From NCBI GenBank assembly GCA_020626475.1, contig JAHKZT010000004.1, positions 1-18,659 of the forward strand: 18,659 nt of DNA, in the 5' to 3' direction. Of the stretch, positions 4,150 to 17,213 are shown piece by piece. Origin of the DNA: a bacterium. GTDB taxonomy: Bacteria > Patescibacteriota > Saccharimonadia > Saccharimonadales > Saccharimonadaceae. Both the position numbers and the translations under genes were made by a program. Every line of letters begins with the position of its first letter. Position 1 is the first letter of the stretch. The notes beneath the pieces are model-generated. The model saw only the letters and a list, made by a program, of their open reading frames with translations, ran no database searches and was not told the DNA's origin.

Positions 4150-5110
4150 TTTTTAGAATTTCTTTATCTACATTTGGTGTGTTATAGATTGTGAGTATTG
4201 GTTGCGGTGTGGAAACTACTTCCCAGGCGCCATCTGAGTTTTTCTTAATGAGAATATGATAATGCGCATAAAGAGCATTCTTTTCTTTACCGTCGATATA
4301 GATGTTTGTGTAGGTATAACCGTTCTTTTCGCGAGGCTCACTGATTATGTAATTATCCGGTAATTGATAGGCAGCGCGAATGAATTTTTTTGCATCAGTG
4401 ATAGGGTTTTGCTGATATGATTCAAAACGATTTTCGTTTAGAAAGACGATATTTTGACTTTCTAATTCAACATCTTCAAAGAGTTTCATTTTCGCTACTG
4501 CGACATCTAGGTAATATGGGTCAGATTTTACGTATACGACAGGCCTATTATTATCGTCGTATTGGTAGCTGATTGAGTAGAGAGAAGTGTTGATTGGTAG
4601 ATAATTAAGGATTGGATAATCCTCTTTCTTTTTTGCGCCACGACGTTCTAGAAGTGATCCGACCATGCCTTCAACTTTTGCGTATTCTTGACGGTGTTGC
4701 TCAATGAATTCCCTTCCCTCATTGTCTATTGCGGAAAGGATGCCGTATAATTCGGCGGTTTGATTAGTAATTTCAATATCTTCTTCGTAAATTTCTAAGT
4801 GTTTGTTATATTCGACCTTTAGATGATATTTACCCGGAATAAGCCAAGTTGTTGAGCCGTTATTCACTTTCGTATCATTGAGAGTGATGGTAGCGGAGTT
4901 AGGCGCAAACTGAATAATTGTTTTGGTTTTTCCTGCGCGATAAATGAGGATGGAGATTGAGTAGATTAAAACGACGGCAAAAACGACAGCTGCAATAATT
5001 ATAGCTGCGCGACTGCGTGGGGTGCTTTGTTTTGCAAGATTTTTTGCAGCAGATTTAATTTTTGATGTTTTTTCGCTCTTTTTCTTTGGAGTAGATTTCT
5101 TTTTTGTCAT
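4133..5110 (-). CDS. Membrane-anchored protein with PEGA-like domain, unknown function
   Basis: A 325-residue protein that starts with a very Lys/Ser-rich cytoplasmic tail (MTKKKSTPKKKSEKTSK). It has one hydrophobic helix at about 36-58 and an external C-terminal part. Just after the helix lies a beta-rich stretch (FAPNSATITLNDTKV, then WLIPGKYHLKVEY) that looks like a PEGA domain, a small surface module seen in envelope proteins. The rest (about 115-325) is not recognised; its end alternates short beta-like strands. The ATG at 5110 is preferred over the in-frame GTG at 5119 because the previous gene's TAA overlaps it as TAATG and AAGGTG lies 9-10 bases upstream. It is the last gene of the secretion-like cluster, so it is probably an envelope accessory of that machine (inference). 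Confidence 0.8.
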   Translation of the reverse strand: MTKKKSTPKKKSEKTSKIKSAAKNLAKQSTPRSRAAIIIAAVVFAVVLIYSISILIYRAGKTKTIIQFAPNSATITLNDTKVNNGSTTWLIPGKYHLKVEYNKHLEIYEEDIEITNQTAELYGILSAIDNEGREFIEQHRQEYAKVEGMVGSLLERRGAKKKEDYPILNYLPINTSLYSISYQYDDNNRPVVYVKSDPYYLDVAVAKMKLFEDVELESQNIVFLNENRFESYQQNPITDAKKFIRAAYQLPDNYIISEPREKNGYTYTNIYIDGKEKNALYAHYHILIKKNSDGAWEVVSTPQPILTIYNTPNVDKEILKTINSY

Positions 5111-6894
5111 TATTGCCACACCTTATTTTGTAAATTACTCTTATAATTTAAGCCGCTTTTAGAAGAATACTTTGGATTGCGATACCAGCGAACGATGGAG
5201 CCGTTACCGAATAGAAGATCCTCGCGTCCTGCCATTGGGGCGCGTGCGGAACTTTGACCATATGATGCTGAGGCGATTTTTGAGTCGAAGCCGGCGATTT
5301 CGCCAACATAAATAAAGGTATGACCATTCGAGAACGCAATATCGCCCGCCTGAAGAATACTTGTGTCGACTTGGCGATTCGGTGAAGCATTTAAGAGAGT
5401 CCAGTTATGGGCTTTCACCCAGGCTTCCTGTGTATCGGTAGCACCTTTAGTATTATTATATTCTGGTTCGAGTCCGGAGTTTTGCGTGAGAATTGTAACG
5501 AAGCCACCACAGTCTATACCTGGAACGCCATTAATAGAACCGCCGACATAGCGTCCCTCGCTAATAGATTGCGAAACTGCGTTTGCGTAGGCTGGCATGC
5601 GATTAATGTATGGCGCTGGATGCCATTCTGGCCAAGCGTAGGATTTTACAAGTTGTGCAAATTCACCATTAACGCTACATCCTTTAGAGTTTACGTTTCC
5701 GTTTACGGCGTCATAGAGAGTGTCGGCGAAGAGTTTTGCGCCGGTAGCGTTTGGATGAATCCAGTCGGAGAAATATTTATCGGCTTTTCCTTTAACTAGT
5801 TCTTTCCAGTCAGCTACTACAATATTTGAATTGTTCTTTGCATATTCGAAGAAGAGGTTATTATTTTCGGTATATTCAAGACGAGTACTCCAGTCGGTCA
5901 CGAAAACAATATTTTTGTCTGTGCCGAGGGTTTTTATGGCCTCATCGATATCTGCGGATGTGAGATTTGGGCTGTTGGCGCCTAAGGCAAAAATAACGTT
6001 ATCTTTAATGTTCTTAGTGTTTTTTGCAATGGCTACAGCTTCATCCCAGCGACGACCGCTCTTTGCAATAATGTCGTCTTGAGTGATATCTGAGAATTTT
6101 TCGAGTAATGCGCTGTTGGATGCTACGGTAATTGAGTCGCCAAAAATTGTGAGATTTTTGCCGTTTTCGGTACCGCTTAGATTTTTGCTAGCACTTGTTC
6201 CCTTACCTGAGAACTGTTTGTAATATTCATTTGCGAAATCGCGGCGTGCGGAAGTACCTTGATATAGAAGGCCTTTATATGGTTCGTAATAAAGAATTGG
6301 TGAGTCTCCACCAACGGCACGCTCGAAGATTGCGAGAAATGCTTCGGCGGCAGCGTTTACGTCGGTTTGCTTTTTGACTTCGGTAATCCAATCAAAAGCA
6401 GATTTTTCCATGGTGAAATCGAGCTGAATTTGAAGAAGCTGATCGAGATCGCCGGCTGGGATATCTTTGGATTTTCCAGCTGGCCACCATTCGGAACCGA
6501 AATATTTTCCAAGTCCGGCCTGATTTACTTTTTCAACTAATGCTGGTGCATAATCGAGACGCCATTGAAAAAGACCCCAATAAGAACTGTTGCTTGCGCG
6601 TGTTGGCTCGACGCCAGTTTCGGCTTTGGCGTTACCGAGAATTCCGGCAACTTGCGCATCGGTAAAGCCTTTATCGATGTAGTAGTTCCAGATTTTCTCT
6701 TCGATCGTATTGCCGGCGAGCTTTGTAGCGGATGAACCACATACGTCGTCGCTACCGTTCGGATTATAGTAGAAGATATTATTTGAATTGAACATATCTA
6801 GGACATCGTCGTTTGGGATAGCGGCGAAGGCTGGCTGAACGATTAAAATTGCGGCTGTAAAAATGTAAGCCAAGAATTTAATTGATTTTTTCAT
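5110..6894 (-). CDS. Secreted triple-domain cell-wall enzyme: phage-tail-type lysozyme, SGNH hydrolase, NlpC/P60 peptidase
   Basis: A 594-residue protein with a signal peptide (MKKSIKFLAY..., likely cut after about residue 24). Residues 64-225 resemble phage-tail lysozymes: GFTDAQVAGILGNAKAE (76-92) then SYWGLFQWR (104-112), with E92 the candidate acid. Residues 247-400 form an SGNH/GDSL hydrolase: GDS with S254, G280, GAN with N307, and DWIH giving D377 and H380. Residues 430-575 look like NlpC/P60: IDCGGFV with C462 and NGHTFIYVG with H525. These families cut glycan strands, remove esters (often acetyl groups) and cut peptide stems. The gene overlaps the upstream gene by four bases (ATGA) and the downstream gene by one. 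In this setting it is a VirB1-like wall-opening enzyme, or acts on a neighbouring host cell. All key residues look intact. Confidence 0.88.
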   Translation of the reverse strand: MKKSIKFLAYIFTAAILIVQPAFAAIPNDDVLDMFNSNNIFYYNPNGSDDVCGSSATKLAGNTIEEKIWNYYIDKGFTDAQVAGILGNAKAETGVEPTRASNSSYWGLFQWRLDYAPALVEKVNQAGLGKYFGSEWWPAGKSKDIPAGDLDQLLQIQLDFTMEKSAFDWITEVKKQTDVNAAAEAFLAIFERAVGGDSPILYYEPYKGLLYQGTSARRDFANEYYKQFSGKGTSASKNLSGTENGKNLTIFGDSITVASNSALLEKFSDITQDDIIAKSGRRWDEAVAIAKNTKNIKDNVIFALGANSPNLTSADIDEAIKTLGTDKNIVFVTDWSTRLEYTENNNLFFEYAKNNSNIVVADWKELVKGKADKYFSDWIHPNATGAKLFADTLYDAVNGNVNSKGCSVNGEFAQLVKSYAWPEWHPAPYINRMPAYANAVSQSISEGRYVGGSINGVPGIDCGGFVTILTQNSGLEPEYNNTKGATDTQEAWVKAHNWTLLNASPNRQVDTSILQAGDIAFSNGHTFIYVGEIAGFDSKIASASYGQSSARAPMAGREDLLFGNGSIVRWYRNPKYSSKSGLNYKSNLQNKVWQ

Positions 6895-9668
6895 ACGAGA
6901 TAATTCCTTTTATCGATAAAGATTGGCGTAACTTGCTGAGCGATGATTGGGGTAGATTCGATTGCGGATGAATCAAGTTTTATTTTTTCTGGTTCTATAT
7001 TTTCGCTGAAAGCGTAGCGTGTACTTGAATTGTACTTTGCAATTTGATCGGAGTAGCGCGCAAACTCGAGTAAGAAGGCGATGTCGTCTTTGGTCTGGCC
7101 GGAAATGCGAGCGAGTGTACCTTCAAAGGAAGTGTCGAGCGGATGCTTTTCGTCATAGGCTTTTTGGTATGCGAGAACCGGGTTGGAATCTTCTTCGTCA
7201 GTCATAGTGCCAAGGATGCGCATATCTTCGACGTAGCGCTGATAATACTTCATTTCGCTATCCCAACGTGGATTTGTGGAACCCATTTGGCAGTTTTTGC
7301 CAGTGCCCCAATCTTGGTTAACGACGTCTTCGGCGGCATTGATGATATCGACAGCGTCGTTAATGAGGAAGGCGCTATTTCCAATAGTGCCAAAATCGGT
7401 CTGGAGTGAATTCATAATATTCGCATCGAGAACACCCCATGGTGATTCACGCTCCGTACAAACACTAATGAACTTTGCGAGTTCGGAATCTTCTTTAATG
7501 CTGCCGTCGTCATTGAGGTTTGGCTCGATGACGGAAACGTAGGTAGGGTCGTCTGGTTGTAGGTCAATTGTGGAATAATCCATGCCGACAATTTCGCCGT
7601 CATAGATATCGCAGACGGTATCTTCGAGTGCGTTGGTGCATTCGGAATAATTCGATGTGTAAATATTTGTATTATCATAGGCGGAAGTTGCTGGATTGAT
7701 GACACTAAGTGAGTTTCTAAAAACATTTGCGAAGTTAGAGAGCTGACCAAAGGCATTATTCGTATAAGACATGAAAGCAAACTTGGATAGTAGTGAACCT
7801 AGGAAGGTATTTTTGCTCGTAATGTCGAATGGACTACGATGGAGACGATCGATCTCGGCTTCTTGAGCGAGCGCGAGCGCGGTTTCGTTGTTTTGGCGCT
7901 TGATGTAATCTTCGGAGGCTGGCATGTACGCACTTCCCTGCGTTGAGAGGCGGAAGTTTGCATTAGCGGCGCCTTGCGAGAATAATTCGCCTGCTGGAAC
8001 GCCGGTGTAAGTTTCGAAGATATGTGTTGCAAAGATTTTTGCGACATATGGAATGAAAGCGTTAACGATAGTGGCGATGATGCCTGTTAGAGCGATGCCT
8101 CCGACAGTGCTTGCTACTGCGCTGACGACGAAGCTTGCTAAGGTTCCGCCAGGAACGGCATTAGCGACGAGCGACATAACGGCAGAGGCTGCTTGTACGC
8201 CATCGCAAACTACATTTGTAGCGCCTGTGCTAATTGCGATAGTGGTTGCGGCGCGGGTGACGTTTTTTATTGAATATGGCGCAGTTTCTTTAGATTCTGA
8301 CGGAGTGCTGCCGAGGATGAGCTTTGCGCCGCTGGATTGAAGTGGTGAGCCGGTGACATCTTTCGTAGAAGTCGTACCGTCTGAATCGACATATTGGACT
8401 TGGCTGGTCGTTTCACCGGTAAGGAAGTTTAGGGTTTCGTTGACTGCGGATGCATCACCCTCTCCTGCCATCATTTTACTGATTGGTTCCATGAGACTTA
8501 AGAAGTAGGCGATTGATTGATAAATCGTGTAAGCCGAAACAGTGACGGCTGCCATATTGGCGATACGGAGCGCGGAGCAAACCGGAACGCCAACGTTAGT
8601 AATTTTACCTGCGATGGAGTTTACCATCGAGCGAGCTTTGGCTTCTGGTGTGTCACCAGAGATATTCTTGGTTTCGACATCTTCGCCGTTTTTGCCGACG
8701 GTTTCTTCGCCAGTTTCTTCGTCGACATGGCGACTGACGGTATTAATGTTGCCATCGGTGCCTGTTACACGATCAGAGACGGTGTCTTTGAAATTTTGCG
8801 TGTCGGTATCGTTGTCGCCGGTCGATTTGTAATCGTTAAAAATGTCGCGTGTGGCGCCCTTTTTCTTGTAGTAGTAATCAGCGGAATCGTCGAAAAAGCC
8901 GGCAACACGGCCGCGTTTGGCTTTGTAGTAGGCTTCACGGAAATTCGCATCGGAAGCAAATTTATTTTGGAAAGAGGCAGCGTCGATGATTTCGTCGTTA
9001 TATTTGAGGACGGTCTTTGAAGTAGATAAGCCTTTTGATGCCTTAAAATTGCCGTCAGCGTCGATCTTGCCAACTTCAATACCGTTCTTTCTGAGACGGG
9101 ATTTCATGTATGGCGTGAAGGTGGTGTACTTTTGGCTGAAGTTGCTGATTTTTATCTGGTCGCCACCATTGATGAGGTATTTAAAAATACGGCTATTACG
9201 AGAGTTGTATGAGGTAAACTGAAGGTCGGTCGCTTCGGTATAGAGACTGGAAAGATGCGGTCCGAGGATGGACTGCGATGCGTAAAATAGACCGCCGCCA
9301 CCAAGAAGTAATGCGGTTATGATAGTGATTGGCGCGAAGCGTTTTTTGAACTTTCCTTTTTGGGGAATAGTTTGTTTTTCGTTGCGTCCGCGGCGAGAGC
9401 TATGTTCTCTTCTACCAGAAACGGAATTACGAAAATTACTTGAAAAATCATTAAGACGGCTACGTTCGACGTCTTTTAGCTTGTCGATAGCGCGGTCGGA
9501 AGGACGATTGGATTTCTCTTTGTCGTCTTGGTTGTCTTTGCTGGCAGATTTTTCAGCATCAGAAAGTTCTTGGCGTGCAATATAATCCGGACGAATTTCC
9601 GGGGTTTCCATGCCGTTATATGGGTCGTGTTCACGACGATATTTTTGACCTGAATTGTCTGCCGACAT
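6891..9668 (-). CDS. Large membrane protein of unknown family in the secretion cluster
   Basis: A 925-residue protein I do not recognise. Residues 1-110 are highly charged and probably cytoplasmic (many R, D, E, K). A membrane helix follows at about 111-131, then a Lys/Tyr-rich soluble region (135-355). Two further hydrophobic regions lie at about 360-400 and 485-550, the second Gly/Ala-rich. A long soluble tail (555-925) has spaced cysteines (for example C677, and DTVCDIYDG shortly after), which suggests disulfides outside the membrane. Position between VirB4 and the wall hydrolase suggests a structural channel or surface part of the T4SS-like machine. It could be a distant VirB6/TrbL-type protein, but no motif proves this. 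There is no Shine-Dalgarno site before the ATG. It ends in TGA overlapping the next ATG. Confidence 0.8.
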   Translation of the reverse strand: MSADNSGQKYRREHDPYNGMETPEIRPDYIARQELSDAEKSASKDNQDDKEKSNRPSDRAIDKLKDVERSRLNDFSSNFRNSVSGRREHSSRRGRNEKQTIPQKGKFKKRFAPITIITALLLGGGGLFYASQSILGPHLSSLYTEATDLQFTSYNSRNSRIFKYLINGGDQIKISNFSQKYTTFTPYMKSRLRKNGIEVGKIDADGNFKASKGLSTSKTVLKYNDEIIDAASFQNKFASDANFREAYYKAKRGRVAGFFDDSADYYYKKKGATRDIFNDYKSTGDNDTDTQNFKDTVSDRVTGTDGNINTVSRHVDEETGEETVGKNGEDVETKNISGDTPEAKARSMVNSIAGKITNVGVPVCSALRIANMAAVTVSAYTIYQSIAYFLSLMEPISKMMAGEGDASAVNETLNFLTGETTSQVQYVDSDGTTSTKDVTGSPLQSSGAKLILGSTPSESKETAPYSIKNVTRAATTIAISTGATNVVCDGVQAASAVMSLVANAVPGGTLASFVVSAVASTVGGIALTGIIATIVNAFIPYVAKIFATHIFETYTGVPAGELFSQGAANANFRLSTQGSAYMPASEDYIKRQNNETALALAQEAEIDRLHRSPFDITSKNTFLGSLLSKFAFMSYTNNAFGQLSNFANVFRNSLSVINPATSAYDNTNIYTSNYSECTNALEDTVCDIYDGEIVGMDYSTIDLQPDDPTYVSVIEPNLNDDGSIKEDSELAKFISVCTERESPWGVLDANIMNSLQTDFGTIGNSAFLINDAVDIINAAEDVVNQDWGTGKNCQMGSTNPRWDSEMKYYQRYVEDMRILGTMTDEEDSNPVLAYQKAYDEKHPLDTSFEGTLARISGQTKDDIAFLLEFARYSDQIAKYNSSTRYAFSENIEPEKIKLDSSAIESTPIIAQQVTPIFIDKRNYLV

Positions 9669-9677
9669 ATCGCTTTA

Positions 9678-9706
9678 ATTATACAATTTTTTAGCGGTAA
9701 AGTCGA
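9678..9706 (-). promoter_or_regulatory. Probable promoter placing the 925-aa gene on a near-leaderless mRNA
   Basis: On the minus strand TCGACT (9706-9701) is followed after 17 bases by TATAAT (9683-9678), and nine bases later by the ATG (9668). A transcript start 7 bases after the -10 box would leave a leader of only about 2 nt. No Shine-Dalgarno sequence is present before this ATG. There is no terminator in the 49-bp gap after virB4, so read-through is also likely. Confidence 0.5.
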
Positions 9707-9717
9707 CGATAAGCACT

Positions 9718-11508
9718 TTATTTTTTGGCGTTTGGATTTGTAGTGATGAGGCTCTCTTCTGTCTCGGATGCAACAATTTGAATATGAACGTGGTTTTGGC
9801 CCGCAAAGAAGAGACCTTGACCGACTGGGAAGCTGGCGAGACGCTTGCGCTCCTCGCTTGTGAGTTTGAAGACATCGGAAAGAACGTCGACGGCAGATGA
9901 AGACTGCTTGAGGAGCAACTGCATAGAGGAGTTGTTGACGATTGCACGGCCCATCTTGGAAGACATGAAGTCTTCAACGTCCTGGGTAATCGTAGTAAGA
10001 CCGAGGTAGTACTTACGAGCGCGCTTAGCAAGGCTGAAGAGGAAGCTTGCGGAATCTTCATATTTCATGAGCTGCCATGCCTCATCAACGATAAGCATAC
10101 GTTTCTTTTGGTTGGCGCGGGTAATGTTCCAAATATGATTCAAAACGATATACATAGCAACTGGACGAAGCTCGTCTTCGAGATCGCGAATGTTGAAAAC
10201 GACCATCTGGTTATTAATGTCGATGTTGCTTTGCTGCGAGAAAATACCTGCGAAAGTACCGCTAGTGTATTTGCGTAGACGGTTGGCAAGGCCTGGACCG
10301 GTGCCGCCCATGTGAAGCAAAGTATCGTAGAGGTTAATGATGGTTGGAGGAGGTGCAGTATGAGTGAGTGGGTCGCTGGTAATACCGGCGCGAGCGTAGG
10401 TATCAATAAGCGCCTGATCGAGATCGGCTTCTTCGTTTGGACTGAGCTGACCGCCGCCAAGCATTAGACGGAAGAGGCCGTGGAGTGTAACGAGGTTTGC
10501 GCGAAGTGCATCGTTTGCATCTTCGGCGTCAACGACTTTCGGTAGATCGAATGGATTAATACGAACATCGGAGCTAAGGCTAAGGCGAATATAGGTACCA
10601 CCAACGGCATCAGCAAGTTTCTGATACTCATTTTCTGGGTCGATAATAAGAACTTCGGTGCCGACCATCATAGAACGAAGGGCTTCAAGCTTAACGGTAA
10701 ATGATTTACCTGCACCAGATTTAGCGAAGACGACCATGTTGGCGTTTTCTAGTGAGAAGCGGTCGAAGATAACAAGACCGTTGTTATGCATATTAATGCC
10801 ATAAAGAATGCCCTTTTCCTGAGTAAGGTCTGCGGAAGTGAATGGGAAGCTGGTAGAAATTGCGCCAGTATTCATGTTGCGGCGAATTTGGAGCTGGTCA
10901 GAACATTGCGGCATAGTGCTGTTCATGCCCTGCTCTTGCTGAGAACTTGCAACCTTAGTGAAGATCATCTGCTGACCGAAGATGTTTTCGATTTTGTGCT
11001 GAACGAATTGAAGCTCGTCGAGAGAATCTGCATAGATGGTAATATACAGCGCATAGCGGAAGAAGCGTTCGGCGCCGACCTGGAGCTGATCGCGGAGATC
11101 CTCGGCATCGGAGATGGCAGCCTCGAGCTCAGGGTCACGAACCTTACCCTTTTCACTGTTGATATCCATCGTAGCTTCGAGCTGGGTAACCTTCTTTTGG
11201 AGGTTTTTCATGATAATGGCGGTTTCAACTGGGTAAATATACATCGAAACATCGAGGACTTCGTCCATGTTAATGATGGAGCTAAGCCAGCCAGTGACGA
11301 GTGTACGCGGATAGCCATAGACGTACATTGTGCGGCCATACTTGGTGCCGATGCGGAAATGATCGGAATGAAATTCGAGGCTAGATGGCGAAATAAGATC
11401 GCGAAGTGTAGTAATACCGGCCTCAAAGGCACGCTGGATTTCTACTTCTTCTTGAAGTTGTGCTTGAGCTGCAATATCGGCAGCGCTGAGTTGTTTTTGT
11501 TTTGCCAT
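9718..11508 (-). CDS. VirB4-family T4SS ATPase (C-terminal ATPase protein)
   Basis: A 596-residue cytoplasmic AAA-type ATPase that powers pilus assembly or substrate transfer in type IV secretion. Walker A AKSGAGKS is at 262-269 and is followed by VLIIDPENEYQKL (286-298). Walker B MLIVDEAW is at 471-478, then KRARKYYLGLTTITQDVEDF (495-514) and a conserved end region QLLLKQ (530-535). The first 230 residues correspond to the middle part of VirB4/TraC. The extreme N-terminal VirB4 domain is missing here and is encoded by the gene immediately upstream. Start ATG at 11508, with AGGAG about seven bases upstream, inside the end of that gene; one base separates the two genes. It is similar in style to the VirB4-like ATPases of Gram-positive conjugative elements. 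Confidence 0.93.
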   Translation of the reverse strand: MAKQKQLSAADIAAQAQLQEEVEIQRAFEAGITTLRDLISPSSLEFHSDHFRIGTKYGRTMYVYGYPRTLVTGWLSSIINMDEVLDVSMYIYPVETAIIMKNLQKKVTQLEATMDINSEKGKVRDPELEAAISDAEDLRDQLQVGAERFFRYALYITIYADSLDELQFVQHKIENIFGQQMIFTKVASSQQEQGMNSTMPQCSDQLQIRRNMNTGAISTSFPFTSADLTQEKGILYGINMHNNGLVIFDRFSLENANMVVFAKSGAGKSFTVKLEALRSMMVGTEVLIIDPENEYQKLADAVGGTYIRLSLSSDVRINPFDLPKVVDAEDANDALRANLVTLHGLFRLMLGGGQLSPNEEADLDQALIDTYARAGITSDPLTHTAPPPTIINLYDTLLHMGGTGPGLANRLRKYTSGTFAGIFSQQSNIDINNQMVVFNIRDLEDELRPVAMYIVLNHIWNITRANQKKRMLIVDEAWQLMKYEDSASFLFSLAKRARKYYLGLTTITQDVEDFMSSKMGRAIVNNSSMQLLLKQSSSAVDVLSDVFKLTSEERKRLASFPVGQGLFFAGQNHVHIQIVASETEESLITTNPNAKK

Positions 11509-11509
11509 A

Positions 11510-12331
11510 TTAGTTCTCCTCTCCTGGTTCAGCCTTTTTTACGTAGAGATGGGCAAGCTTATTAAAGTCGCCGAGCGGTTCGCGGACAGCAGTATCTGGG
11601 TTATTGAAGTTGTAGTAAAGCTGACCGAGTTCCTTGGTGTTGAGGCGAACAGATTGAATACCAATCTGGAAGAGACCGGAAACAACAGCTTCGGCACGGT
11701 TGTTGATTTCAGTAACGGCTTTGTCGTAGGTAGCGCGATCGATGCGCGTAACTGGCGGAGTTTTGTCTTTTGCGAAGGTTTTAAAGAAGTTTTTGGATTG
11801 CTCGAGAGCCTTCTCCGCTTCTTTGGAGGTGTAATAAGGAATGACGACAAAGAAGGATTTGTCCATAATGTTTGCTTCCTGAGAAAGAACGTCGATGAAG
11901 TTGATGTAGTCGTCCATGAGGACGCCGAGGAGCATATTATCATTTTGGCGGCGAAGGTCCATGAGGCGATCGATATAAGGAGCGATATCGACGCGCTGAG
12001 AACGAACGAGAATCTGTACGGTGAAGTTGAGAGAGTTGAGGAAGTTTTGGTAAGAATACTCAACTGCCTCGCGTTCTTCTTCGGACATAAGGTCGAAGTT
12101 GATGGATTTACAGGCAACGACGGCACGGAAGGACCCGTCTTTCATAATAACCATGGAATCACGAAGCTCGGAAATCAAAAGGCTAGATTGGGAAGAATTT
12201 GGATTGTCGTGGCGCGGTGCAGCTGCTGTATTTGGTGCTGGCTGTGTATTTGCTTGCTGAGGCATGCCTGGTTGAGCTGCTGGAGCAGCTTGTGGCATTT
12301 GGGCTGGTTGTGGTTGTTGATTTGGTTGCAC
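11510..12331 (-). CDS. TraC/VirB4 N-terminal-domain-like protein
   Basis: A 273-residue protein. Residues 1-45 are a Pro/Gln/Ala-rich disordered leader. Residues 50-270 look like the N-terminal module of VirB4/TraC proteins: SELRDSMVIMKDGSFRAVVACK (54-75), FNL-type segment INFDLMSEEE, then LNFTVQILVRSQRVD (101-115). There is no Walker motif. With the adjoining ATPase it would give a total length near that of a full VirB4, so it probably pairs with it at the membrane. The start is GTG (12331), supported by AAGGAG five bases upstream that overlaps the stop of the PrgI-family gene. Encoded between PrgI and VirB4, it belongs to the same operon. I am confident of the family assignment, less so of the exact function. 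Confidence 0.85.
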   Translation of the reverse strand: MQPNQQPQPAQMPQAAPAAQPGMPQQANTQPAPNTAAAPRHDNPNSSQSSLLISELRDSMVIMKDGSFRAVVACKSINFDLMSEEEREAVEYSYQNFLNSLNFTVQILVRSQRVDIAPYIDRLMDLRRQNDNMLLGVLMDDYINFIDVLSQEANIMDKSFFVVIPYYTSKEAEKALEQSKNFFKTFAKDKTPPVTRIDRATYDKAVTEINNRAEAVVSGLFQIGIQSVRLNTKELGQLYYNFNNPDTAVREPLGDFNKLAHLYVKKAEPGEEN

Positions 12332-12340
12332 AATGACTCC

Positions 12341-13360
12341 TTAATGTAATGATATATATACTTCGTTATCGTTCGACTTTTTCTCTTGAATACGTTTTGC
12401 TTGTTTAGCGATAGTTTCAATTGAGTAATCTGAATTGTTGGCGAGATTTTTCATTTCGGTGCTTGGCTCTGGTTTTGGTGCCGGCTGTGGGGCTGGTGCA
12501 GGTGCTGGTTGAGCCATTGGTTGTGGCGCAACTGGCTGAGTTGGTTGGATTGGCGCTTTTGGCGTGGTCGGAATAGAAATGGCAGGCGGTTGATATTGCT
12601 GAGCTTGTGGTGCAATAGGGGTGAAAGTTTGAGCTACTGGAGTTGGTGCTGGCTGTTGTACTGGCGCAGGTGCTGGTTGAGTCATTGGTTGTGGCACAAC
12701 TGGCTGAGTTGGCTGGATTGGCGCCTGATGCGCAATTTGAGGTGTTTGTTGTGGCGCAGTAGAACCATAAACGCTAGTCTGATTAATTGCATTGCGCATT
12801 TGTTCGACGAGCTGGGCGTGGCGATTTGCTGTGCTCTGCTCTAGGCTATGATCGAGGGTGTAGTTTTGATTTGCTTCGAAAATATCTTGTGCTTGAGCAG
12901 CCTCGCTGGCAATATCGTCGCGAAGGTTGGAGTTGGTGTCTTTGATGGCGTAGCCTTCGGTATCGACGATGTTAGCAAGGAAGGAGAGACGACGGCCAGC
13001 CTCTTCTTGGCTGAGGTCTTTTGTGCGGCTTTCTTCGACGTTCTTTGGCGCAGTAATGGTAATAGTGGTGTCAGATTGGCCTGGCATCCAAATGCGTTTT
13101 TGCGGTTTAAGATAGAAATCGACAACAGCAGAAAGATAAGTCTCCATAGGCTGATCTTTTTTAAGAGGTAATGCAAGTACGCCTAGGAAGATAATGATTG
13201 GAATTGGAATAATAACTAATAATGGGAAAATTTGAAACAAAAGAAAAGCAACAAAACAGAGACCCGCGGCAATCATCAAATAGACGAATTGGCGGAAGCT
13301 AAAAGGACCGAGGAGTTTATCATCTGCCTCGACATCCTGCGGGACCTTATATTGAGCCAT
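12341..13360 (-). CDS. PrgI-family T4SS inner-membrane protein with Pro/Gln-rich tail
   Basis: A 339-residue protein. Residues 1-100 match the PrgI pattern: MAQYKVPQDVEADDKLLGPFS, two close membrane helices (about 25-44 and 46-66), then ALPLKKDQPMETYLSAVVDFYLKP. PrgI-type proteins occur just before VirB4 in many Gram-positive and CPR type IV systems and are thought to join the ATPase to the membrane channel. Residues 105-200 are hydrophilic. Residues 200-300 form a Pro/Gln/Ala-rich low-complexity region with a 21-residue unit repeated at 213-233 and 269-289. The last 35 residues (KNLANNSDYSIETIAKQ...) return to ordered-looking charged sequence. The ATG at 13360 has no Shine-Dalgarno site; an extended -10 box lies six bases before it. 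Confidence 0.9.
   Translation of the reverse strand: MAQYKVPQDVEADDKLLGPFSFRQFVYLMIAAGLCFVAFLLFQIFPLLVIIPIPIIIFLGVLALPLKKDQPMETYLSAVVDFYLKPQKRIWMPGQSDTTITITAPKNVEESRTKDLSQEEAGRRLSFLANIVDTEGYAIKDTNSNLRDDIASEAAQAQDIFEANQNYTLDHSLEQSTANRHAQLVEQMRNAINQTSVYGSTAPQQTPQIAHQAPIQPTQPVVPQPMTQPAPAPVQQPAPTPVAQTFTPIAPQAQQYQPPAISIPTTPKAPIQPTQPVAPQPMAQPAPAPAPQPAPKPEPSTEMKNLANNSDYSIETIAKQAKRIQEKKSNDNEVYISLH
12498..12724. repeat. Pair of 59-bp direct repeats inside the PrgI-family gene
   Basis: 12498-12556 and 12666-12724 are direct copies with a 168-bp period and 3 mismatches in 59 bases. The period is a multiple of three, so the repeat stays in frame and encodes the two APIQPTQPV-PQPM-QPAPAP units. Such near-identical DNA suggests a recent duplication or slippage, and a site prone to length variation. 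Confidence 0.85.
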
Positions 13361-13366
13361 ACTTTT

Positions 13367-13375
13367 ATTTTAACA
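13367..13375 (-). promoter_or_regulatory. Extended -10 promoter of the PrgI-VirB4 operon
   Basis: Minus-strand TG-T-TAAAAT (13375-13367) is an extended -10 element. Exactly six bases separate it from the ATG (13360), so a start 7 bases after the box would be the A of the ATG itself. The only DNA between the upstream terminator hairpin and this ATG is 28 bp, which forces any promoter to lie here or to overlap the hairpin. No good -35 box is seen, as is usual for extended -10 promoters. Confidence 0.5.
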
Positions 13376-13388
13376 TAAACGCAATAGG

Positions 13389-13416
13389 AAAAGGACCGCG
13401 TAAATGCGGTCCTTTT
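13389..13416 (-). terminator. Rho-independent terminator after the VirB6-like gene
   Basis: AAAAGGACCGC (13389-13399) pairs perfectly with GCGGTCCTTTT (13406-13416) around a 6-base loop. On the minus strand the hairpin is followed by TTTT, 16 bases past the VirB6-like stop codon. On the plus strand the T-run is longer still (TTTTTT, then another T-run), so it can work both ways. It separates the VirB6-like transcript from the PrgI-VirB4 operon. Confidence 0.88.
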
Positions 13417-13432
13417 TTAGATTTTTTTGTTT

Positions 13433-16381
13433 TTAGTCTCTGACGCCAAGCATCTTGCGGACGGCTGGGTTCATGCCAGTACGCTGGCTTGCCATAGACT
13501 TCTCTGTATTGAGCTGATGGATTTGCGTCTGGAGCGCGTCGTGGAGACGTTTGTTGACGACTCGACCATTAATGGTGACGGTTGCGCCAGCGGCATTACC
13601 GTCGATTGCAAGCATTGCTTCATTTAATTGAGTAATAGTTGCAGTCTTTAGTGTTGCTAATTGTGGTGCAGTCATGTCGCCAACGAAGCTTAGGATATTT
13701 GATGCGTAAGAATCCTGATGGTCGAAGAAGAATTTATTGTCCGGATGATCTGCTGGTTTTTTGCTATCGTAACCGCCAGTAAAGAATTTATTAAAGGAGG
13801 CTAAGCGTTCGCCGTCCATCTGGCCAGAACAGACCGCGGAACGGAGATATTTGATCGGATAAGTAGCAAGATTTTCATTTCCGTTTGCGTCATGCGCGAT
13901 AACGCCGGCTTTTTGGTCGTCGAGCTTTTGGTTCCACATCGTGCGATCGGCGCTTGCGATTGCTTTCCAATCGCTAAGTGCATTGCCGAGTACAACGACG
14001 TTTGTTTTGCTTGCTGCGCCCATATCGTGGTCGCCTGCAAGTGTTGCACCGCTAGACCAAGTTTCGTAGTCGATGAAGGATTCGATATCTTTGCCCTTAC
14101 CATTCATGCCACGGCGCATCATATTAGCCTTAGCCCATTGTGCAGCGTCGAGGTCTTCTTGTTTGAAGGTGAGACAAATATCGTTGAGTTCCTTTTGGAA
14201 GCGGATATTACCTTCGCCGTAAGCTTCTTTAGAATATCTACGAAGAACATCGCCAATGTCGTCTTTATCGCCACGTTTGTACATGACTTCAAGAGCGGCG
14301 GACATTGAGTTGTAGTCCTTGTTTTGGAAGGCATTGATGAGTTGACGCTTGATACGTGGACCAGCTTCATAATCATCGTAAAGCTCAACATAGTTACTGC
14401 GGGCTTCGTGGTCAACTTTGCGCTTAGCGGTAACAGCGTCGGCGAGAGTGGCATTGATAGCTTTTTGGCCAGTGTCGTAGATTTCCTTTTCGGACGCGGT
14501 AAGGTTGCCGCCACGTAGTGCGCTGAGCTGGGTTGCGGTTAGCGTATTGCCAGTTCTCTTGATGACATCTTTTTCATCGTTATTAAGGCCTTCACCTCTA
14601 GCGATTTTTTGGATAGCGCCGCGCTTGAGTACTGCTTCATCGTAGGCATCTTTCTTTGCTTTAGCGGAATCGTAATCTGAGGCATTAATGTTGAAGGCAT
14701 CGAGGACGCGTTGATGGATGGCGTTTCTGCTCGTCTCTACATTATCGTGAATGAGCTTCGCGCGGTGTTCCATATTATTAAGCGTAACTTGGCGTTTGCG
14801 TGATTCGGCAGTAGCGGCGTCGACGATTGCATTATCGTAGCCGCGGTTAGTAGCATGAATGGCGCGAGCCATACTGCGACCACGAATGCGAGGATCGGTT
14901 CCGTCAGCTTTGAAGCCTTCATCGAAATCGCTCTCGACGTTCATACGCGCATTAGCGTTATTCATCTTGGCGAGTTCGTTTTGATAATGGCGAAGACCGC
15001 GTCTATTGAGGGTGCCATCGCGGCGGCGCCAGCTTGTCATCGCGTTAGTTAGGTTGCGATCTTTGTTACTTGCCGCGAGCTCAGCGGCATCAAATTCACG
15101 CTTAGTACGCTGTTTTTCGAGATACTGTGCGAGGCGAGTAGATGGCATGATAGGATTGCGCTTGTTGATTTGCTTCTGCTTTGCAAGTGCTTGTTGGCCT
15201 GCAGAGTAACGGCCGAAGGCGCCCAATGGGCGGGCTGCGGCGCGATTGATGCTGCCGCTGATTTTGCCGAGAACAGAGTTAGACATGCGCATGAGCGGAA
15301 TTGACATAAAGAGTGGAAGAACCTTTACGGCAATGCCGAGAACGATGCCGAGCCAGTTGGTTGCAGAAGTGATAATTACAAGACCAGCGAGCTGAGATGC
15401 ACCATAAAGAATGCTAAACATCGGGTAGAAGAATAGCATCTGGGCAAGCATTTGATACCATTTTTTGAACCATTTATCGGTATTTGGAAGCATGTAAGCA
15501 ATGATTGCGAGAGGCGAGATCATGACTAAGAGATAGATGAGTGCCTGACGTGCGGCCATTGTTACGACTGCGGAAATTACGGCAATGAGACCAGAGAGAA
15601 GAATTGGGAGAAGTAGCCAAATGACGCCGCCGATACTACCGTAAACTAATGCACCGGCGAAAACTGCGCCTGCCGTGCCGATGCCGAGCATAGCTGCAAC
15701 GATGCCACCAACAGAGGCGCCGTTAGCAACTTCGGAAATAGTACCATTTTCGATTGCGATATTTTGGACATTTACGAAGAAGTCCTGGAAGGCGTTACCG
15801 AGAATATTGCTGAGGTCGACGGCAAGCGTACAGATAATGTAGCTGAGGTTGACGAGGATGGCGGAAATAATAATGCGCGGCAATGCTTTTTTGATGCCGT
15901 AGTTATTAATACCGAAGCCGGTAAGCTGAGAGATGATGATGACGAGAATAAAGATAATGAAGATAGTATTTGTAATGTCTTTAAAGTATTCCCAGACGAC
16001 GTAGGTTGGTGATTCGTTATCGGTTGGAAGCGGATTTACTTCGATAATCTGAGTTAAGAGATCGTAGGCGCCGTCGATAACATTACCAAAAAGACCCGCG
16101 CCTGGACAAATAATCCAGCCGAGGCTACCTACCTGGTCATAACAACTAACTTTAGAGGATTCTTCGTCCTCTTCTTCCCCGTCGTTATTATCATTATCAG
16201 TAGTTTCGTTTCCGTTTTCGTCGGTAGTAGTGTCTGCATCTGGTTCATCTGTTACTACAGTAGTATCGTCGTTATTGCCATTACCAGTATCCGGAGTAGC
16301 AAAAACTGGGCCGGATAGCGCTAGTATGCCAAATACGGCCGCTATAACAGATAGGACTATGCTTTTAATACACTTGCCCAT
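13433..16381 (-). CDS. VirB6/TrbL-like multi-pass membrane protein with long soluble tail
   Basis: A 982-residue protein: signal peptide 1-28 (ends PVFA), an Asp/Glu/Thr/Asn-rich acidic stretch (31-76), and a hydrophobic core with about seven membrane helices (roughly 137-152, 168-190, 225-246, 250-275, 279-298, 311-335, 345-364). A charged soluble C-terminal region of about 610 residues follows. The helix-rich core with a conserved-looking stretch AARQALIYLLVMISPLAIIA fits the VirB6/TrbL channel proteins of type IV systems. The long tail is not recognised. I place the start at the second ATG (16381). The upstream in-frame ATG at 16402 would put the -10 box inside the coding region, and only the second start gives an ordinary signal peptide. 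There is no Shine-Dalgarno site. It has its own promoter and terminator. Confidence 0.85.
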   Translation of the reverse strand: MGKCIKSIVLSVIAAVFGILALSGPVFATPDTGNGNNDDTTVVTDEPDADTTTDENGNETTDNDNNDGEEEDEESSKVSCYDQVGSLGWIICPGAGLFGNVIDGAYDLLTQIIEVNPLPTDNESPTYVVWEYFKDITNTIFIIFILVIIISQLTGFGINNYGIKKALPRIIISAILVNLSYIICTLAVDLSNILGNAFQDFFVNVQNIAIENGTISEVANGASVGGIVAAMLGIGTAGAVFAGALVYGSIGGVIWLLLPILLSGLIAVISAVVTMAARQALIYLLVMISPLAIIAYMLPNTDKWFKKWYQMLAQMLFFYPMFSILYGASQLAGLVIITSATNWLGIVLGIAVKVLPLFMSIPLMRMSNSVLGKISGSINRAAARPLGAFGRYSAGQQALAKQKQINKRNPIMPSTRLAQYLEKQRTKREFDAAELAASNKDRNLTNAMTSWRRRDGTLNRRGLRHYQNELAKMNNANARMNVESDFDEGFKADGTDPRIRGRSMARAIHATNRGYDNAIVDAATAESRKRQVTLNNMEHRAKLIHDNVETSRNAIHQRVLDAFNINASDYDSAKAKKDAYDEAVLKRGAIQKIARGEGLNNDEKDVIKRTGNTLTATQLSALRGGNLTASEKEIYDTGQKAINATLADAVTAKRKVDHEARSNYVELYDDYEAGPRIKRQLINAFQNKDYNSMSAALEVMYKRGDKDDIGDVLRRYSKEAYGEGNIRFQKELNDICLTFKQEDLDAAQWAKANMMRRGMNGKGKDIESFIDYETWSSGATLAGDHDMGAASKTNVVVLGNALSDWKAIASADRTMWNQKLDDQKAGVIAHDANGNENLATYPIKYLRSAVCSGQMDGERLASFNKFFTGGYDSKKPADHPDNKFFFDHQDSYASNILSFVGDMTAPQLATLKTATITQLNEAMLAIDGNAAGATVTINGRVVNKRLHDALQTQIHQLNTEKSMASQRTGMNPAVRKMLGVRD

Positions 16382-16390
16382 AACTCTTTT

Positions 16391-16419
16391 ATTATAGCAC
16401 ACATAAGCTTTTTAGTCAA
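16391..16419 (-). promoter_or_regulatory. Strong promoter of the VirB6-like gene, leaderless geometry
   Basis: Minus-strand TTGACT (16419-16414), a 17-base spacer and TATAAT (16396-16391) form a near-consensus sigma-70-type promoter. Nine bases after the -10 box comes the ATG (16381). The expected transcript start is 16382-16385, so the mRNA would have about 1-4 untranslated bases. This is the clearest of the near-leaderless starts in the window. Confidence 0.8.
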
Positions 16420-16533
16420 GTATTATGTTGTATTTTTTGGATATTTCATGCGGTTTTTGGAAAAAGCTAAAAAATAAGATAATATATATTGCTTCTGGCG
16501 AACCATGGCATGTTAATCTAAAATAAATATAAG

Positions 16534-16542
16534 TGGTATAAT
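16534..16542 (+). promoter_or_regulatory. Extended -10 promoter of the pilin operon
   Basis: TGG-TATAAT is a perfect extended -10 element pointing right. Eleven bases separate it from the ATG at 16554, giving an expected leader of about 4-5 nt. The AAGG at 16549-16552 is one base from the ATG, too close for a normal ribosome site. It is divergent from the VirB6-like promoter, with about 115 bp between the two promoters, so the two transcription units could be co-regulated. Confidence 0.7.
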
Positions 16543-16553
16543 TTAGGTAAGGT

Positions 16554-17213
16554 ATGAAAAAGAAAATATTTCTATTAACGGTCGTAGTTAGCATATGTAG
16601 TTTCGCAATTAATTATAGTGAAGCTTCTGCATATACGAAGAACGAGTTGGGGCAATTATGTCAAACGATGGGCGGTACTTGGAGTGAGTCTTCCTTGAAG
16701 TGTACTGGCGGCGGTGTTAATTCGTCGAGTTGTTCTAGCTATGGAGGTAGCTATTCGAATCCAACCAGCAATGGGCATGATTTTACGCCTACCTGTTCCT
16801 GGACCTATGGTAGTTTAGGCAGCGATACTAATAGTGATTCTTCGACTACTGGCGGTGACGGTAGCATTGCAGATGTAAGTGAAGGCCAATGTACGTCTAT
16901 TCTCCCCGGCGGTTGGTGTGATGGCAAAGATGGCATCGGTAGCATCATTAATATGATTGTCTCTATTTTGACTGGCGCAGTTGTAGTTGCTGGTACGATT
17001 GGTATTATTATTTGCGGTTTCTTATGGATGACGGCTAGAGACAATGAAGCACAAGTGGCGATGGCGAAGAAGCGTATGCTAGATATTGTAATTGGTATTG
17101 TTGCATGGGTATTGCTGGCATTGATTGCGAATTTATTTATTCCAAAGACCTCGAGCGATATCGAATCAGATATGGGTTATAATGGAAATAGTAGTAAGGA
17201 TATAAAAGCATGA
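16554..17213 (+). CDS. T4SS pilin-like protein with Cys/Ser/Gly-rich ectodomain
   Basis: A 219-residue secreted or membrane protein. It has a signal peptide (about 1-26, ending ASA). A Cys/Ser/Gly-rich part follows (27-128, seven cysteines: 36, 50, 60, 81, 113, 122 plus C15 in the signal). Then come two membrane helices (about 131-158 and 175-195) joined by the charged loop ARDNEAQVAMAKKR (161-174), and a polar tail. The two-helix hairpin with a short basic loop is the architecture of VirB2/TrbC-type pilins and of the T4SS-pilin families found in CPR bacteria. The loop lacks the QGDP motif of the next three genes, so it may be a minor or tip subunit. Its TGA overlaps the next ATG (ATGA), showing translational coupling. 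Confidence 0.8.
   Translation: MKKKIFLLTVVVSICSFAINYSEASAYTKNELGQLCQTMGGTWSESSLKCTGGGVNSSSCSSYGGSYSNPTSNGHDFTPTCSWTYGSLGSDTNSDSSTTGGDGSIADVSEGQCTSILPGGWCDGKDGIGSIINMIVSILTGAVVVAGTIGIIICGFLWMTARDNEAQVAMAKKRMLDIVIGIVAWVLLALIANLFIPKTSSDIESDMGYNGNSSKDIKA

What the first reader, a model, noticed from the sequence alone, without database searches (positions are those of the whole stretch)
9660..16560. Secretion-cluster transcription units look leaderless, while internal genes use Shine-Dalgarno sites
Seen: in four places a -10 box lies 6-11 bases before the ATG. These are TATAAT-N9-ATG at 9683-9668 and 16396-16381, TG-T-TAAAAT-N6-ATG at 13375-13360, and TGG-TATAAT-N11-ATG at 16534-16554. Two also have -35 hexamers at exactly 17 bp (TTGACT and TCGACT). 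None has a usable Shine-Dalgarno site. In contrast, operon-internal genes (11508, 12331, 18321) and dnaA/dnaN have AGGA/AGGAGG. Known: leaderless mRNAs are translated by 70S ribosomes in some lineages. Inference: the first genes of these units use a different initiation mode, which would decouple them from SD-dependent control.
Basis: partly seen in the sequence, partly recalled or inferred. Interest (0 to 1): 0.8.

Follow-up and report, generated by a model that had tools for sequence, protein, structure and literature searches.

The report
Leaderless genes common in Saccharibacteria
In this tiny bacterium the messages for several secretion genes appear to begin at, or within a few letters of, the start codon, with no ribosome landing site; the same arrangement turns up in many unrelated genes of the sampled genome and of relatives, so it looks like a general way of starting translation there rather than something special to secretion.

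Summary
In detail: all four -10 boxes lie where stated, 6-11 nt before the ATG, with no usable Shine-Dalgarno (SD) site. It exceeds chance but is not specific to the secretion cluster. In a 19% sample of this genome, 16 of 60 unit-leading genes have a -10 box 6-10 nt before the start (200 shuffles: mean 2.7, maximum 7); in samples of 13 genomes of the same order, 81 of 348 (mean 14.6, maximum 29); in 44 E. coli starts, none. At the commonest spacing, 6 nt, the base before ATG is a pyrimidine in 93% of 75 genes against 52% of 480 others, pointing to transcription from the A of ATG. The PrgI gene keeps a near box in 74 of 77 loci, SD in 0 of 77; VirB4 shows the reverse. The gene at 13433-16381 has its promoter fused to the ATG in the window's kin, but 17-62 nt away in most other clades. 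The pilin box (16554) is the weakest. Internal genes show the signal too, less often. Leaderless bacterial genes are known; seven lineage-specific literature searches found no report for Saccharibacteria. No transcript ends are mapped.

The parts
13361..13375 (-). Extended -10 box (TG-T-TAAAAT, 13375-13367) and the 6 nt between it and the ATG of the PrgI-family gene; predicted transcript start on the A of the ATG
   Evidence: Coordinates; near box in 74 of 77 orthologs, SD in 0 of 77
12341..13360 (-). PrgI-family T4SS protein gene, 339 aa, predicted leaderless
   Evidence: PF12666 4.4e-13 from residue 5; start trusted by alignment in 77 of 77 orthologs
13386..13412 (-). Terminator-like hairpin (GGACCGC-N6-GCGGTCC, 13412-13393) with T-rich tail, just upstream of the PrgI promoter; hairpin ends 32 nt before the ATG
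   Evidence: similar hairpin ending 28-66 nt before the ATG in 28 of 77 relatives, 0 of 159 control starts
16382..16419 (-). Promoter TTGACT-N17-TATAAT with TG extension, 9 nt before the ATG at 16381; predicted leader 0-3 nt
   Evidence: a promoter-like site of this type found in 72 of 73 relatives
13433..16381 (-). Large secretion-cluster gene with a signal-peptide-like N-terminus (by eye); no Pfam match, called virB6 in my scripts as a label only
9669..9706 (-). Promoter TCGACT-N17-TATAAT, 9 nt before the ATG at 9668
   Evidence: -10 box at 5-11 nt in 22 of 24 orthologs with a trusted start (of 38 found; only 2 with TG extension), SD in 0 of 24
6891..9668 (-). 925-aa secretion-cluster protein gene without a Pfam match, predicted near-leaderless
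16534..16553 (+). Extended -10 box TGG-TATAAT, 11 nt before the ATG at 16554; predicted leader about 5 nt; weakest of the four
   Evidence: 12 nt in L003, but 26-38 nt from box to ATG in L002, L006, L008, L009, L018, L020 (starts there not verified)
16554..17213 (+). T4SS pilin gene (first of four pilin genes)
   Evidence: PF18895 1.4e-7
9718..11508 (-). VirB4/TraG-type ATPase gene, internal, SD-led: the contrast case
   Evidence: PF19044 1.8e-30; SD in 77 of 77 orthologs with a trusted start (of 80), near -10 box in 0
11510..12331 (-). Internal gene with AAGGAG before its GTG

Best explanation
The organism, a Saccharibacteria lineage, uses two start modes side by side. Roughly a fifth of unit-leading genes, and fewer internal ones, have a sigma-70 type extended -10 promoter (consensus near TRTGNTATAAT) butted against the ORF, so that RNA polymerase begins at the A of the ATG (spacing 6-7) or a few bases before it (8-11). 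The mRNA then starts with AUG, or has a leader of at most about 5 nt, and cannot hold an SD site. Initiation on such mRNAs would be by the leaderless route (70S ribosomes binding a 5' AUG). Other leading genes have a -10 box further up (20-44 nt) and mostly an SD, and internal genes about half SD by a simple tetramer test. Three secretion-cluster starts (13360, 16381, 9668) fit the leaderless or near-leaderless mode well and 16554 only loosely. Shown: the sequence pattern, its excess, its conservation and the start-site signature. Inferred: the actual 5' ends and the ribosomal route.
For: Excess at 6-10 nt over 200 dinucleotide shuffles: own sample 16 of 60 leading genes (mean 2.7, max 7); 13 genomes of the order 81 of 348 (14.6, max 29); E. 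coli 0 of 44 starts. Gene starts were called without upstream information. Start-site signature: pyrimidine at -1 in 93% of 75 spacing-6 genes against 52% of 480 genes without a near box (58% of the 253 leading ones); at 147 -10 sites lying 20-44 nt from a start the pyrimidine-purine step is 0.40 at position 7 after the box against 0.18-0.28 at positions 2-6 and 8-13, and at spacing 6 position 7 is the A of the ATG. SD tetramers in 5 of 105 genes with a near box, 55 of 78 leading genes with a box at 20-44 nt, 215 of 413 others (partly mechanical, as the box fills the SD site). PrgI: near box in 74 of 77, SD 0 of 77; VirB4 the reverse, 0 and 77 of 77. A terminator-like hairpin ending 32 nt before the PrgI ATG leaves no room for a long leader. 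ObgE and MnmA are 58 nt apart and divergent, with boxes at 6 and 7 nt, and their Pfam matches begin at residues 3 and 1. The anti-SD CCTCCTTTCT is present in the six relatives whose 16S 3' end I could read.
Against: No transcript 5' end was mapped. The gene caller is home-made, favours ATG and missed the right start of 16554 in its strict setting. Spacings 9-11 could give leaders of 2-5 nt rather than none; the -1 pyrimidine is also high at 9 (91% of 22), 10 (86% of 7) and 11 (92% of 12), where a start on the ATG is less expected, and only 50% of 16 at spacing 8, so that sign is not clean. In other families of the order the PrgI box is found in only 7 of 17 loci. Single genomes are small samples and uneven, e.g. 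G002 3 of 25 at 6-11 nt with the tolerant caller but 7 of 36 with the strict one, G035 2 of 21. The window genome's own 16S was not found. Ortholog counts are not independent.
Confidence: 0.85

Rival explanations
1. The boxes are real promoters, but most translated mRNA comes from promoters further upstream, with longer leaders; the near start is minor.
For: The gene at 9668 lies only 49 nt behind VirB4 and could be read through. Some genes have a second -10-like site, e.g. 16554 at 29 nt.
Against: Terminator-like hairpins ending 28-66 nt before the PrgI ATG in 28 of 77 loci, 0 of 159 controls. Divergent pairs 58-70 nt apart leave little room. No SD would be available on a longer mRNA at PrgI (0 of 77).
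Confidence: 0.1
2. Short-leader rather than leaderless (overlaps with the best explanation): spacings 8-11 give 2-5 nt leaders, and these genes are started by ordinary 30S complexes without SD.
For: Two of the four window genes have spacing 9 and one 11. In spacing-9 genes a pyrimidine-purine step at position 7 occurs in 50% of 22. The -1 pyrimidine bias persists at spacings 9-11.
Against: In leading genes of 13 genomes the peak is at 6 (37 of 348) and 7 (17), falling to 4 at 11. In spacing-9 genes the step at the ATG itself is in 91% of 22.
Confidence: 0.3
3. Wrong start codons: true starts lie downstream and the leaders are of ordinary length.
For: Start calling from sequence is error-prone.
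Against: PrgI starts are supported by alignment in 77 of 77 loci. 16381 and 16554 open signal-peptide-like segments (by eye). Pfam matches begin at the first residues for MnmA, Obg and trigger factor.
Confidence: 0.03
4. Chance TATAAT-like words in AT-rich intergenic DNA.
For: Own sample GC is 39%.
Against: 200 dinucleotide shuffles never reach the observed counts in the own and 13-genome samples; a sharp peak at one spacing; the -1 pyrimidine bias.
Confidence: 0.02

Closest known systems
TA-led (leaderless) genes of bacteria as defined by Zheng et al. 2011 (PMC3160421, passages seen)
   Same: TANNNT core about 10-12 bp before the start, excess over dinucleotide shuffles; mixed with SD-led genes in one genome
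   Different: That survey of 953 bacterial genomes does not mention TM7 in its main text (0 occurrences); here the box is an extended TRTGNTATAAT
Leaderless transcriptomes of Mycobacterium and Deinococcus (search listing; review PMC9031893, passages)
   Same: A fifth or more of genes start with AUG; SD genes exist alongside
   Different: In Mycobacterium the 5' ends are mapped; here they are predicted. Different phylum, reduced genome
Actinobacterial leaderless mode (Actinobacteria are the usual hosts of cultured Saccharibacteria; recalled)
   Same: Similar share of genes (more than twenty percent in Actinobacteria by Zheng et al.)
   Different: No evidence here of transfer; the signal also appears in other Patescibacteria families

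Membership tests
Leaderless (TA-led) bacterial genes | TANNNT -10 core at about 6-10 nt before the start codon | tested here: met
   Three of four window genes at 6, 9, 9; the fourth at 11
Leaderless (TA-led) bacterial genes | Excess over dinucleotide-preserving shuffles genome-wide | tested here: met
   On samples, not whole genomes: own 16 of 60 against max 7 in 200 shuffles; 13 relatives 81 of 348 against max 29
Leaderless (TA-led) bacterial genes | No SD site upstream | tested here: met
   PrgI 0 of 77; 9668 gene 0 of 24 trusted orthologs
Leaderless (TA-led) bacterial genes | Start-site signature (pyrimidine-purine) at the ATG | tested here: met
   93% of 75 at spacing 6 against 52% of 480; less clean at other spacings: 50% of 16 at 8, 92% of 12 at 11
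Leaderless (TA-led) bacterial genes | Mapped transcript 5' end at or within a few nt of the AUG | not testable with these tools
   No 5'-end data for Saccharibacteria seen in the searches
Leaderless (TA-led) bacterial genes | Initiation by 70S ribosomes | not testable with these tools
   Needs biochemistry
Type IV secretion cluster | VirB4-type ATPase, PrgI and T4SS pilins together | tested here: met
   PF19044, PF12666, PF18895 in four genes

The most novel reading that the evidence does not exclude
Leaderless initiation is an old, standing second start mode of Saccharibacteria and of several other Patescibacteria lineages (absent or lost in some), covering about a fifth of transcription units. 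Individual secretion genes switch between it and a leadered mode, in many species with the SD inside a hairpin, while keeping the same core promoter: the 13433-16381 gene has its promoter fused to the ATG in the window's kin and 17-62 nt away in most sister clades.
Probability: 0.5. Interest if true: 0.68.

Novelty: new member of a known kind. Interest (0 to 1): 0.55.

Why it matters
Saccharibacteria are epibionts with very small genomes and are hard to do genetics in. If about a fifth of their units are leaderless, gene callers that demand an SD will misplace starts, expression constructs for them could dispense with a leader, and a deep-branching group joins the lineages in which the leaderless mode can be studied. 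The secretion-cluster gene with one promoter and two leader states offers a natural test of what a leader is for.

Tried and rejected
Secretion-cluster specificity: rejected. N-terminal hydrophobicity as a common trait of genes with a near box: no difference (19 of 95 against 46 of 257, p = 0.65). Strict first/internal dichotomy: rejected, since internal genes also peak at 6 nt (17 of 177 at spacing 6). Loss of the anti-SD: not seen in six relatives; of eight relatives with a 16S match I could not read the 3' end in two, and the own genome had no match. Loss of ribosomal protein S1 as a cause: the rpsA search rang in 78 of 78 Patescibacteria genomes, over the family's cut-off in none, and in the controls in 14 of 14, over it in 2, so nothing follows. 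Consensus fold of the leader of the 13433-16381 gene: RNAalifold on a mixed alignment of 43 leaders, and on a subset of similar length, gave no structure, although single leaders fold into a short hairpin. A blast of dnaN against E. coli found nothing and was not needed. Direction of the leader switch: 2 changes on the VirB4 tree (24 leaderless, 49 leadered rows, shuffled mean 20.3), but only one long-branched outgroup, so left open. In that labelling I set L042 as leaderless by eye although the script picked another promoter, and L048 and L073 as leadered although an in-frame ATG follows the box at 1 and 4 nt; L043 was dropped (no promoter found). First pilin gene: no trusted start in 21 orthologs by alignment; a positional scan found a box at 5-12 nt in 30 of 71 loci, starts not verified. 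E. coli control: I used 44 of the 48 CDS listed, leaving out thrL, mbiA, mokC and hokC, and did not split them into leading and internal.
Full report
WHAT WAS CLAIMED AND CHECKED. The window is a whole contig (C200) of a genome of 807,705 bases in 265 contigs, 81.6% complete; its VirB4 is 99% identical to that of a public Saccharibacteria record (L002). It holds dnaA, dnaN and a recF-like gene (label from position and an SMC_N match), then a minus-strand type IV secretion cluster (VirB4/TraG-type ATPase 9718-11508, PrgI 12341-13360, and large proteins without Pfam matches at 6891-9668 and 13433-16381), and four plus-strand T4SS pilin genes. Distances from box to ATG ('spacing' below) are 9 (9668), 9 (16381), 6 (13360) and 11 (16554). 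Internal genes (11508, 12331, 18321) and dnaA and dnaN have SD-like sites.

IS IT MORE THAN CHANCE. I called genes with a codon model that sees nothing upstream of the start and counted boxes (TA at 1-2, T at 6, at most one mismatch to TAA between) by spacing. 'Leading' genes have an opposite-strand neighbour at least 40 nt away, or at least 80 nt of free upstream DNA; 'internal' genes have a same-strand neighbour within 30 nt. Own sample (40 contigs, 149,990 bases, window not counted): leading genes 12 of 60 at 6-7 nt (200 dinucleotide shuffles: mean 1.2, max 5) and 16 of 60 at 6-10 (2.7, max 7); internal 5 of 34 (0.9, max 4). Samples of thirteen genomes of the same genus, family or order: leading 54 of 348 at 6-7 (6.0, max 18) and 81 of 348 at 6-10 (14.6, max 29); internal 24 of 177 at 6-10 (3.8, max 11). 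E. coli K-12, 44 annotated starts: none at 6-10, one at 11. Per spacing the 13-genome leading count is 37 at 6, 17 at 7, then 12, 10, 6, 4 at 8 to 11; elsewhere from 0 to 49 it is 0-11 and mostly 1-7. Single genomes are uneven small samples: G002 gave 3 of 25 at 6-11 with the tolerant caller and 7 of 36 with the strict one, G035 2 of 21 at 6-7 and none at 8-11.

WHERE TRANSCRIPTION STARTS. At 147 -10 sites lying 20-44 nt from a start, the pyrimidine-purine step stands at 0.40 at position 7 after the box, against 0.18-0.28 at positions 2-6 and 8-13 (position 1 is trivially high because the box ends in T). That calibrates the start in these genomes; at spacing 6 that position is the A of the ATG. 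The base before ATG is a pyrimidine in 93% of 75 spacing-6 genes, against 52% of 480 genes without a near box (58% of 253 leading ones). At other spacings the sign is mixed: 74% of 34 at 7, 50% of 16 at 8, 91% of 22 at 9, 86% of 7 at 10, 92% of 12 at 11; the last three are more than a start on the ATG alone would predict. The box is extended: at spacing 6, T -15 is 64% and G -14 is 71% of 76. So I read 13360 as leaderless, 16381 and 9668 as having 0-3 nt, and 16554 about 5 nt.

CONSERVATION. In 80 public loci around VirB4 the PrgI gene has a near box (5-11 nt) in 74 of 77 with readable upstream DNA, 73 of them TG-extended, and an SD tetramer in none; VirB4 downstream has SD in 77 of 77 trusted starts (of 80) and a near box in none. 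A terminator-like hairpin ends 28-66 nt before the PrgI ATG in 28 of 77 (32 nt in the window), against 0 of 159 control starts, so a long leader is unlikely there. In 17 readable loci of other families of the order the box is present in 7. The gene at 9668 has a near box in 22 of 24 orthologs with a trusted start, of 38 found.

A NATURAL EXPERIMENT. For the 13433-16381 gene a scan found a promoter-like site (TG-extended -10 with a -35) in 72 of 73 relatives, in most of them with the same TTGAC and a shared spacer. In 23 of these (plus the window) the box lies 9-10 nt before the ATG; 3 of those 23 hold an SD tetramer in that gap. In 49 I scored it as leadered: in 47 of them the gap from box to start is 17-62 nt (the leader being about 6 nt shorter), and 28 of the 49 hold an SD tetramer, often GGGAGG within a short predicted hairpin. 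On the VirB4 tree the two states need 2 changes. Which state is older is not settled. The pilin start 16554 has close kin with a box 26-38 nt from the ATG (L002, L006, L008, L009, L018, L020) and one with 12 (L003), so it is the weakest of the four.

NOT A SECRETION TRAIT. Of 24 genes with a near box in the own sample I scanned 20 with Pfam; 15 matched at 1e-8, among them ObgE, MnmA, leucyl-tRNA synthetase, trigger factor, a release factor, a dihydrouridine synthase and a phosphoglucomutase/phosphomannomutase, also a sortase-domain protein.

WIDER REACH. Eleven Patescibacteria genomes outside the order, two 20-kb stretches each, pooled: leading 14 of 213 at 6-7 (3.5, max 10) and 23 of 213 at 6-10 (8.1, max 16). 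I then enlarged four of the eleven to six stretches each, two of them (G100, G061) because they had looked positive: 6-10 nt counts exceed all 200 shuffles in three (G100 11 of 67, max 8; G061 10 of 38, max 7; G084 9 of 63, max 5) and not in the fourth (G082 1 of 72, mean 2.8). A single-contig genome of the own order gave 8 of 45 (mean 1.5, max 6), internal 0 of 28.

LITERATURE. Zheng et al. 2011 (PMC3160421, passages) established that TANNNT signals near the start most probably mean leaderless genes and that these are widespread in bacteria. Nakagawa et al. 2017 (PMC5397173, passages) surveyed 260 prokaryotes in 14 bacterial and three archaeal phyla; TM7 and Saccharibacteria have 0 occurrences in its main text. 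Ten searches ran and an eleventh failed on a word form. Seven joined leaderless or Shine-Dalgarno with a name of the lineage or candidate phyla; none listed a paper reporting leaderless genes in Saccharibacteria or Patescibacteria by title or abstract start. Of their joint hits I opened four for passages: three only cite a title with the word (PMC7441243, PMC6851277, PMC10434106) and one remarks on YchF and leaderless mRNA (PMC12641178); the others (such as PMC13361665, PMC12369343, PMC9251427) I saw only in the listing. The library lacks most subscription papers, the GeneMarkS-2 paper and preprints, so absence here is weak.

VERDICT. Observation confirmed; leaderless or near-leaderless reading well supported by sequence; cluster specificity not supported; control by a different initiation mode is inference. 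A new lineage for a known kind of gene, with a testable two-state promoter as the most interesting part.

Noticed in passing
L025-L029, L031, L054, L064, L069 upstream of the 13433-16381 ortholog: 33-35 nt between -10 box and ATG, with a predicted hairpin of about 6 bp (CGCCT...AGGCG) whose 3' arm holds the GGGAGG SD site; missing in the window's clade. It may be a translation-regulating hairpin.
   Followed up: partly
L112 13106-13165: Divergent ObgE and MnmA genes only 58 nt apart, each with its own -10 box 6-7 nt before the ATG: two back-to-back leaderless promoters.
   Followed up: partly
16391-16419 and relatives: The spacer next to the -10 box of the 13433-16381 gene (GCTTATGYGTG) is shared by many clades, perhaps more than a promoter alone would need; a regulator site is possible.
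   Followed up: no
1765-2020: Stretch between dnaA and dnaN without a gene called by my caller, a possible replication origin region.
   Followed up: no
5110-6894: Gene with a phage-tail-lysozyme domain (PF18013, 4.2e-19) in the secretion cluster.
   Followed up: no
G061, G084, G100 against G082: Other Patescibacteria differ: three show the near -10 excess, one does not.
   Followed up: partly
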